From assembly GCF_026240635.1 (NCBI RefSeq), contig NZ_CP110848.1, positions 1,924,501-1,988,500 on the forward strand: a stretch of DNA of 64,000 nucleotides, given 5' to 3'. This document shows, piece after piece, positions 27,718-57,924 of this stretch. How positions within the stretch are numbered: the first letter of the stretch is position 1; every line of letters starts with the position of its first letter. This DNA is from Trichothermofontia sichuanensis B231. Lineage in GTDB: Bacteria > Cyanobacteriota > Cyanobacteriia > B231. Under the pieces are notes generated by a model that saw nothing but the letters and a program-made list of their open reading frames with translations, ran no database searches and was not told the DNA's origin. The translations under genes were made by a program, and so were the position numbers.

Positions 27718-27748
27718 GGCTCTCCTGAGTTTATGGTGGGGGCGCTAC
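27718..27748 (+). mobile_element. truncated copy of the GGCTCT-ended MITE
   Basis: GGCTCTCCTGAGTTTATGGT plus GGGGGCGCTACC matches the first ~31 bases of the elements at 29943-30159 and (inverted) 57709-57820, after which similarity stops inside the MAPEG gene. The reverse strand of this fragment supplies the last codons (Ala-Pro-Pro-Pro) and the TAA of the MAPEG gene. Confidence 0.65.
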
Positions 27749-29851: not shown

Positions 29852-29942
29852 TGGCGCTAGGGAGAATGGCCCTAGCAGGCTAGGACAAGGAGGGTAGGTA
29901 CCCGCTAGAGCAATGCTTAATCTAAGACGTTAATAACCCGTT

Positions 29943-30159
29943 GGCTCTCCTGAGTTTATGGTTAGAGCGCTACGCGCCCCCACCATAAACTTAGCGTTTG
30001 CGATCGTTTGTTTGTATGGTCAATCCAAATAAGAACGACACGATTTTTGACTGCCCTCTCCCGCTCTGGGAGAGGGGTTGGAGGTGAAGGTGCTGTTTCA
30101 GCCTAAATTGCAATGACTATAGTTGCTGATACTATTTACCCCAAACCCCCAGAAGAGCC
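29943..30159 (+). mobile_element. GGCTCT-ended MITE with nested 107-bp MITE
   Basis: The left end is GGCTCTCCTGAGTTTATGGT and the right end, read inverted, GGCTCTTCTGGGGGTTTGGG. The 8 bases outside are AACCCGTT (29935-29942) and AACACGTT (30160-30167), a target duplication with one mismatch. The internal palindrome GCGCTACGCGC lies beside CCCCCACCATAAACTTAG. The 107-bp element at 30015-30121 is inserted inside. End sequence and 8-bp duplication are compatible with the ISL3 family (from memory). Confidence 0.75.
30015..30121 (+). mobile_element. 107-bp MITE, copy G (+), nested
   Basis: Full-length forward copy inserted at a TA within the element at 29943-30159. The uninterrupted relative at 57709-57820 reads TTTGTAGCTGCTGATACTG at the same place, so the insertion duplicated TA and nothing else. 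Confidence 0.93.
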
Positions 30160-30165
30160 AACACG

Positions 30166-30732
30166 TTAATAACATAACTGTGAAACCGTATTAAAGGGCG
30201 AATTACGCCAACTGGCAGGATAGCATGATCTTAGGGTGCGACTCTCACTATTACCGTAAGAATAGGGAGGGCGATAGGGATAGGTATTGAGATCCGGTTG
30301 ATAGAGGCCACGATCGCGGCGACTGGGGAAAGAGCGGTCGCGATCGAACCCAATATCCTCACGATAAACCCGATCACGGGTAATGATCCGGGTTCGCGGT
30401 CTGCTGGCAGGCCCTTCCTGATAAATGATAATGGTTTCCGCCTTTGGGGCTACGATCACCGTCTGAGGCCGTCCTAGGCGCGATCGCGTTGTATCGCCAT
30501 AGGGAAATCGCCCCCATGCGTCAGTCTGGCCTAACGGTTGCGGGTAGACAGGCGCAGGATATTGCCGAACCCACGACGATCGCGGGTAAGGGTTACCAAC
30601 CTGGAGATAAATACCCGGCTGCGGAGCCTCCAAAGCCAGATAGGGATCGGGTTGACCCGCTTGTGCAACGTCGGCCACCAGGGGAATCATCGCGGTTGCA
30701 AGTGCGGTTGCAACATTCAATATAGTTTTCAT
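30166..30732 (-). CDS. exported protein of unknown function
   Basis: 188 aa. Residues 1-25 look like a signal peptide (ILNVATALATAMIPLVADVAQA, Ala-x-Ala type site). The mature part is rich in Pro, Tyr, Arg and Ser with several basic-aromatic runs and two late Cys (RSCYPASW...QLCY), giving a secreted, low-complexity basic protein. I do not recognise the family. The TAA stop lies in the target duplication of the adjacent MITE, so the C-terminus may have been trimmed. Confidence 0.65.
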   Translation of the reverse strand: MKTILNVATALATAMIPLVADVAQAGQPDPYLALEAPQPGIYLQVGNPYPRSSWVRQYPAPVYPQPLGQTDAWGRFPYGDTTRSRLGRPQTVIVAPKAETIIIYQEGPASRPRTRIITRDRVYREDIGFDRDRSFPSRRDRGLYQPDLNTYPYRPPYSYGNSESRTLRSCYPASWRNSPFNTVSQLCY

Positions 30733-48488: not shown

Positions 48489-48990
48489 ATTTGTCCGACC
48501 AGTTCAGGGATTGAGCTTAAGGCCAGTACTGACCCAATCAGGCATCAGAAAATCAGACCTAGTTTGAACTTTGCATCTGTTTGAACTTTGCATCTGATCG
48601 CAATACAGTATCTATCTAATCTACTAACTACTGATAAACATTGACTGCATACTGACAAACATCCTTTGTCCCTATAGAAAGGCATCTCTGTCACCTTCGC
48701 TGTTTTATGGTCATTCCAATTTAGGTTGAAACAGCCCCTCACCTCCAGCTCCTCTCCCGCTCAGCGAGAGGGGAGTGAAAAACTGTATCGTTCTTATTTG
48801 GATTGACCATATATCCGAAAACGATAACTAGCAATCACTAACGATCACTACAGGATTCCTGCTTGAATGGAGGGGCGAAGTCGTGGTAGAACGCTGGTTG
48901 CGTCAGGTATCACGGCACCTCACTAAATCAGTAGCCAGGAACTGGATGTGTAAAATATAACCGATAAATTGCGCAAACCGCGACGATCGC
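48489..48990. other. intergenic region between kinase and hypF
   Basis: 502 bases without a supported gene. It holds the MITE copy at 48706-48811. The duplicated ATCTGTTTGAACTTTGC / GAACTTTGCATCTG near 48560-48600 is a short direct repeat. The kinase promoter must lie here, but no clear boxes were found. Confidence 0.4.
48706..48811 (-). mobile_element. 107-bp family MITE, copy L (-)
   Basis: 106 bp, left end TATGGTCATTCCAATTTAGG, a hybrid of both end types, right end GGATTGACCATA. TA at both ends. Confidence 0.88.
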
Positions 48991-57316: not shown

Positions 57317-57924
57317 CTAAATGATTGCTATTCTGTCGAGTTGGCCATACTCTGGGTTGGAGACACCGTAGTAGCGTACCCCTAGCTGTTGATAAATCAT
57401 GAGTTTGTCATCGTACTCACCCCCCGGTGTCCAGGGGACAATCTCTAACGTCAGCGTTGGGACAATCCCGTTTTCTTCCCAAACCACGTAGCTTTTGCGG
57501 GATTGGTTACCTGCCTTGCGGCGCAGGCCCCCTAAACTCAGAAAGGCATCCGGGACAACGGGAACCCTGGGACTCGCCCCGGTGGTGTGATAGATCCCCA
57601 TATCAACGCCAAAGTACTCATCCTGGCGATCGCTCCAGAGTAGTTCCAACAAGAACAGCAGATAGTTCGGTAAAAAAGATAGTTCGGTAAAAAGTTCTGA
57701 TCTTCGTTGGTTCTTCTGGGATTTTGGGGTAAGCAGTATCAGCAGCTACAAATAAACGATCGCAAATGCTGAGTTTATGGTGGGGGCGCTACGCGCCCCC
57801 ACCATAAACTCAGAAGAGCCTCTTCGTTATCCACCGGCGTATCGTCGGAGCTAGGTAGCTCGTCGCTGCTAGGTAAATGGTGGTGTTCGTACAGCGTTTG
57901 CGTAGGAGAATCGCTGGAAAGCAT
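57317..57924 (-). pseudogene. Uma2 (DUF820) family nuclease, broken by a MITE and a 17-bp duplication
   Basis: ATG 57924 reads MLSSDSPTQTLYEHHHLPSS...DDTPVDNEE, then a GGCTCT-ended MITE (57709-57820) interrupts. Removing the MITE with one 8-bp target copy, and one copy of the adjacent tandem repeat (TTTTTACCGAACTATC twice, the second copy one base longer), restores DQNFLPNYLLFLLELLWSDR, then QDEYFGVDMGIY, the normal Uma2 sequence. The PD-(D/E)xK core follows (PDAFLSLG, LTLEIVPW) up to YYGVSNPEYG. The C-terminus is cut at a second, 135-bp repeat. The gene is inactive. Confidence 0.85.
57709..57820 (-). mobile_element. GGCTCT-ended 112-bp MITE inside the Uma2 gene
   Basis: Both flanks are TCTTCGTT (57701-57708 and 57821-57828), an exact 8-bp target duplication. 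The ends are GGTTCTTCTGGG and, inverted, GGCTCTTCTGAG. The centre has the perfect palindrome around GGGGGCGCTACGCGCCCCC. This is the uninterrupted version of the element at 29943-30159. Confidence 0.9.

What the first reader, a model, noticed from the sequence alone, without database searches (positions are those of the whole stretch)
30015..30121. Filled-site versus empty-site pair proves the MITE boundaries
At 57709-57820 the GGCTCT-ended element reads (reverse strand) TTTGTAGCTGCTGATACTG. At 29943-30159 the same sequence is interrupted after TTTGTA by the 107-bp element and resumes as TAGTTGCTGATACT. The only duplicated bases are TA. This gives the exact insert and shows the order of insertion: the GGCTCT element first, the 107-bp element later.
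Basis: seen in the sequence. Interest (0 to 1): 0.8.

Follow-up and report, generated by a model that had tools for sequence, protein, structure and literature searches.

The report
One mini-transposon nested inside another
In a cyanobacterial chromosome a 103-bp mini-transposon has jumped into an older 112-bp mini-transposon, duplicating only the two bases TA; comparison with uninterrupted copies fixes the edges of both exactly, and the event is a clean example of a known kind.

Summary
At 29943-30159 a 112-bp element (GGCTCT...AGAGCC, 8-bp repeats AACCCGTT/AACACGTT) is interrupted by a 103-bp element (30017-30119, TGGTCA...TGACTA) with TA on both sides. The flanks joined with one TA are exactly 112 bp and align without a gap to the intact copy at 57709-57820 (86%) and better to other intact copies (92%). 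Both elements are multi-copy MITEs. The host is ISL3-type: 31 of 41 copies have perfect 8-bp duplications, and one end matches the end of the genome's only ISL3 transposase relic. The TA element has probably 300-400 copies; 40 of 46 copies sampled without regard to TA have TA on both sides, and about ten further filled/empty pairs agree. Its ends define a MITE group spread across cyanobacteria with different cores. No transposase gene carrying these ends was found, so IS630 is only 'works like', not membership. The order of insertion is correct for these two copies, not for the families. Three other nested copies use the same TA of the host, in both orientations. Verdict: confirmed; new members of known kinds.

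The parts
29935..29942 (.). Left 8-bp target duplication of the host MITE, AACCCGTT
   Evidence: Read directly; right copy AACACGTT differs at one base; 31 of 41 copies of the family have perfect 8-bp repeats
29943..30016 (+). Left part (74 bp) of the ISL3-type 112-bp host MITE, ending in its own TA
   Evidence: nhmmer match to model positions 1-74; alignment to the intact copy
30015..30016 (.). Left TA target copy
   Evidence: Filled/empty alignment
30017..30119 (+). Inserted 103-bp TA-type MITE, TGGTCA...TGACTA, with hairpin core CCCTCTCCC...GGGAGAGGG
   Evidence: Absent from every intact host copy; full-length model match 30017-30121 including one TA; 92% identical to the family consensus
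30120..30121 (.). Right TA target copy
   Evidence: Filled/empty alignment
30122..30159 (+). Right part (38 bp) of the host MITE, ending AGAGCC
   Evidence: Alignment to the intact copy; 74 + 38 = 112 bp
30160..30167 (.). Right 8-bp target duplication of the host MITE, AACACGTT
   Evidence: Read directly
57709..57820 (-). Intact 112-bp copy of the host MITE (empty site for the TA element)
   Evidence: flanked by perfect repeats AACGAAGA at 57701-57708 and 57821-57828

Best explanation
Two non-autonomous mini-transposons landed at one place in succession. First a 112-bp ISL3-type MITE inserted with an 8-bp target duplication. Later a 103-bp MITE of another family inserted into a TA inside it and duplicated only that TA. 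Shown: the boundaries, the TA and 8-bp duplications, the nesting and its order. Inferred: the host MITE was moved by an ISL3 transposase acting in trans, and the TA element by a TA-targeting transposase, most likely of the Tc1/mariner/IS630 kind, whose gene was not found.
For: Gap-free joint and equal length of 112 bp with the intact copy; 49 of 49 matches gap-free at the joint; 40 of 46 copies sampled without regard to TA have TA on both sides; about ten further filled/empty pairs in other repeat families agree. Host: 31 of 41 perfect 8-bp repeats; the only ISL3 transposase relic carries ISL3 zinc-ribbon, HTH and DDE domains, and its left end aligns with the host's right end, z = 6.2. TA duplication is what Tc1/mariner/IS630 enzymes make, as shown for ISY100 (PMC2170065).
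Against: The ISL3 relic is broken and its right end is missing, so only one end could be compared. No transposase bounded by the TA element's ends was found in this genome or in the relatives searched. The host's 8-bp repeats at this site differ at one base.
Confidence: 0.93

Rival explanations
1. The nested form is ancestral and the intact copies arose by precise excision of the 103-bp element together with one TA.
For: Precise loss would leave the same sequence as an empty site; nothing in a single pair excludes it.
Against: Dozens of intact copies at unrelated sites with their own 8-bp repeats would all need precise losses; only four nested copies were found; the nested units differ in host subfamily and in the orientation of the insert.
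Confidence: 0.03
2. The TA element is moved by a transposase other than Tc1/mariner/IS630, for instance an IS5-type enzyme with a TA target.
For: No IS630-type locus inspected carries the ends TATRGTCA...; in G306 such ends lie near fragments matching DDE_Tnp_1.
Against: G306 is full of these MITEs, so nearness is weak evidence; the one such case in this genome, L195, is a truncated MITE beside a different transposase fragment. TA duplication is the hallmark of Tc1/mariner/IS630 (PMC2170065).
Confidence: 0.3
3. The two MITEs moved together as one 217-bp composite element that spread by ISL3-type transposition, so the nested copies descend from one event.
For: Four nested copies have the insert at the same TA of the host.
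Against: The insert lies in opposite orientations in different copies, the hosts belong to three subfamilies that also have intact members, and the finding's insert is only about 90% identical to that of L030.
Confidence: 0.05

Closest known systems
187-nt ISL3-type MITE of Microcystis aeruginosa PCC 7806 (PMC11448079)
   Same: Inverted ends beginning GGCTCTTCG, 8-nt target repeats, stem-loop, many identical copies; ends shared with an ISL3 transposase element. The 112-bp host MITE has GGCTCTTCTG ends, 8-bp repeats and a long hairpin.
   Different: 187 nt against 112 bp; intact ISL3 elements are present in Microcystis, only a relic here.
RUP of Streptococcus pneumoniae (PMC2229807)
   Same: A 107-bp non-coding element in about a hundred copies, inserted at TA and often found inside insertion sequences.
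   Different: RUP's ends match IS630-Spn1; no helper is known for the element here. No sequence comparison was made.
ISY100 of Synechocystis, Tc1/mariner/IS630 family (PMC2170065)
   Same: Insertion almost only into TA, TA duplicated, imperfect inverted ends of about 24 bp.
   Different: ISY100 encodes its transposase; the element here does not, and the IS630 copies of this genome have other ends, CAGC(C/A)TTTCC.
MITEs without a matching insertion sequence in Anabaena sp. 90 ('type II', PMC3542288)
   Same: Cyanobacterial MITEs whose ends match no insertion sequence of the same genome.
   Different: Sequences not compared; target duplications not stated in the passages read.
Nezha (Zhou et al. 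2008)
   Same: An active MITE of cyanobacteria, cited in PMC10969869.
   Different: Its sequence and paper are not held, so no comparison was possible.

Membership tests
ISL3-type MITE (112-bp GGCTCT element) | 8-bp target duplication | tested here: met
   31 of 41 copies perfect, 2 more with one mismatch
ISL3-type MITE (112-bp GGCTCT element) | Ends shared with an element that encodes an ISL3 transposase | tested here: met
   Right end aligns with the left end of the ISL3 relic, z = 6.2; relic has PF14690, PF13542 and PF01610 domains. Only the relic's left end survives.
ISL3-type MITE (112-bp GGCTCT element) | Intact helper transposase in the same genome | tested here: not met
   A single partial PF01610 match in the genome. 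A present-day helper is not required for membership of a MITE family.
Tc1/mariner/IS630-type MITE (103-bp TA element) | Insertion at TA with duplication of TA | tested here: met
   Filled/empty pairs; 40 of 46 copies
Tc1/mariner/IS630-type MITE (103-bp TA element) | Terminal inverted repeats | tested here: met
   Imperfect ends TATGGTCAATCCAAATAAGAACGATACAG / TATAGTCATTGCAATTTAGGCTGAAACAG, z = 5.3
Tc1/mariner/IS630-type MITE (103-bp TA element) | Ends shared with an element that encodes an IS630-family transposase | tested here: not met
   IS630 copies here end in CAGC(C/A)TTTCC; PF13358 loci in five other genomes lack the ends
MITE in general (103-bp TA element) | Short, no transposase gene | tested here: met
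   103 bp; only chance ORFs of at most 40 aa overlap it
Nezha | Sequence similarity of the ends | not testable with these tools
   Paper and sequence not held (one search gives the citation only)

The most novel reading that the evidence does not exclude
The 103-bp element belongs to a cyanobacteria-wide superfamily of TA-inserting MITEs that keep about 20-bp ends (TATAGTCATTCCAATTAAG type) but carry different cores, moved by a transposase not yet linked to them; and one TA of the ISL3-type MITE is a preferred landing site for it.
Probability: 0.25. Interest if true: 0.45.

Novelty: new member of a known kind. Interest (0 to 1): 0.28.

Why it matters
The pair settles something the ends alone leave open: they read TATRGTCA...TGACTATA, so the duplication could have been two, three or four bases, and the empty site shows that it is TA. 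That allows two abundant cyanobacterial MITE families to be defined exactly and the missing transposase to be searched for. The shared ends with different cores across cyanobacteria, and the repeated use of one TA, are testable leads; the nesting itself is ordinary.

Tried and rejected
(a) The genome's own IS630 copies as helpers: their ends are TA-CAGC(C/A)TTTCC, not TGGTCA. (b) PF13358 loci in G149, G306, G265, G263, G008 and PF01609 loci in G149, G000, G265, G306: none is bounded by these ends on both sides; L195 looked promising but is a truncated MITE beside a different transposase fragment. (c) A scan of viral contigs for the ends gave only chance matches inside phage genes. (d) A solo end in G149 (L104) lies at the end of an ordinary gene, not a transposase. 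(e) An exact 24-mer of the left end occurs in no other genome of the GTDB collection, where the window's own genome may be left out. (f) Rfam: nothing credible at the site. (g) A gene seemingly restored by removing the TA element at window 2236: it lies between two intact genes. (h) The whole genome was not available as a file, so copy numbers are estimates from searches and a sample of stretches.

Full report
Observation. At 29935-30167 the sequence reads AACCCGTT, then GGCTCTCCTGAG...TTTGTA, then TGGTCAATCC...GCAATGACTA, then TAGTTGCTGATACT...CCAGAAGAGCC, then AACACGTT. The reverse strand at 57701-57828 reads AACGAAGA, GGCTCTTCTGAG...TTTGTAGCTGCTGATACT...CCAGAAGAACC, AACGAAGA. Alignment gives one 105-base block absent from the second copy, with matching flanks. 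With the block removed the first copy is 112 bp, the same length as the second; the global score is 19 s.d. above shuffled sequence.

Independent support for the TA boundary. The genome (4.437 Mb, one contig; a cyanobacterium judging from a psbA-like gene in the window, my identification) holds many copies of the 103-bp element. Of 46 full-length copies taken from a BLAST list and the window, without requiring TA, 40 have TA on both sides. Among 104 copies the bases outside TA favour T before and A after; many of these were picked with a pattern that fixes the left TA, so only the right side and the outer bases are unbiased there. I joined the flanks of each of the 104 copies, keeping one TA, and looked for intact relatives. 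About ten different insertions, in several repeat families, have a counterpart that runs gap-free through the joint in most or all matches. The pair at 30 kb is the clearest, with 49 of 49 matches gap-free.

Copy number. One degenerate 19-base end occurs 161 times in the genome, and 47 of 104 sampled copies carry it, which suggests roughly 300-400 copies. The 667-682 first-look candidates are an upper bound that may include core-only matches. The window has six such ends in 64 kb against 36 per Mb in the genome, so it is enriched.

The host element. Forty-one unique 112-bp copies were collected; 31 have perfect 8-bp flanking repeats and two more have one mismatch. Twenty-nine are identical outside the hairpin loop. 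The only ISL3 transposase match in the genome is a relic with ISL3 zinc-ribbon, HTH and DDE domains. Its left end, GGCTCTTCTGGGTTTTTGGTGTAA..., aligns with the host's right end, z = 6.2. A copy of the host MITE sits at the broken end of this relic with the perfect repeat TGACTTAT. GGCTCTTCG ends and 8-nt repeats are described for an ISL3-type MITE in Microcystis (PMC11448079), and an 8-bp duplication for an ISL3-family transposon in Staphylococcus (PMC9782665). A 79%-identical version of the same length occurs in another cyanobacterium, G007.

The TA element's relatives. In 390 genomes of the class its end motif occurs in eight, its own included in the table. In several of them, and in named genomes such as filamentous cyanobacterium ESFC-1, Microcystis, Okeania and a Pseudanabaenaceae MAG, the motif closes elements of 89-184 bp with other cores, mostly flanked by TA. 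In G306 some carry the same CCCTCTCCC hairpin core as here. That core is itself common across cyanobacteria without these ends. No transposase gene bounded by these ends was found.

Mechanism. Shown: two insertions, their target duplications, and the order for these two copies. Inferred: ISL3 transposase in trans for the host; a TA-specific enzyme, most likely of the Tc1/mariner/IS630 kind, for the insert. In vitro, ISY100 of Synechocystis inserts almost only at TA and duplicates it (PMC2170065). The 107-bp RUP of pneumococcus, tied to IS630-Spn1 and often found in insertion sequences, is a close functional parallel (PMC2229807).

A repeated landing site. Four nested units were found in which the TA element occupies the same TA of the host (position 73-74): at 1.954 Mb (the finding), 1.586 Mb, about 1.516 Mb and 3.507 Mb, in three host subfamilies and in both orientations. 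The first three came from the joined-flank search of the 104 copies; the fourth from a search for this junction. The host has seven TAs by my count, so three of three at one TA has a chance of about 2% under equal use: suggestive only.

Order. The statement that the GGCTCT element came first is right for this copy. It is not a statement about the families: the GGCTCT family has a burst of identical copies, while the TA elements have a median identity of 94% to their consensus.

Verdict. The finding is real, correctly read and useful for defining boundaries; MITEs inserted in other mobile elements are a known phenomenon. New members of known kinds; interest modest.

Noticed in passing
57709-57820 and loci L031-L060: The three-base loop of the host MITE's long hairpin reads GTA in 18 and TAC in 11 copies that are otherwise letter-identical, and both forms occur again in an older subfamily: the stem-loop seems to have been inverted more than once, or two source copies spread.
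   Followed up: partly
L001, L030, L279, L308: The 103-bp element occupies the same TA (host position 73-74) in four nested copies, in both orientations and three host subfamilies.
   Followed up: partly
L039:725-1610: The genome's only ISL3 transposase relic is split into two frames near a run of A, and an identical copy of the host MITE with repeats TGACTTAT sits at its broken end.
   Followed up: partly
L039:675-775: The left half of the host MITE with its hairpin lies directly outside the ISL3 relic's left end, perhaps a trace of how the MITE arose.
   Followed up: no
L103-L145, L221-L245: Ends of the TATAGTCATTCCAATTAAG type close MITEs of 89-184 bp with different cores in many cyanobacteria.
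   Followed up: partly
L012:1486-1630: A 103-bp element lies between the first 16 and the last 21 bases of a GGCTCT-type element whose middle is missing.
   Followed up: no
27718-27747: A 30-bp left fragment of the GGCTCT element, cut off within its hairpin.
   Followed up: no
48706-48809: A copy of the TA element whose two halves also match each other well as inverted repeats (matches on both strands).
   Followed up: no
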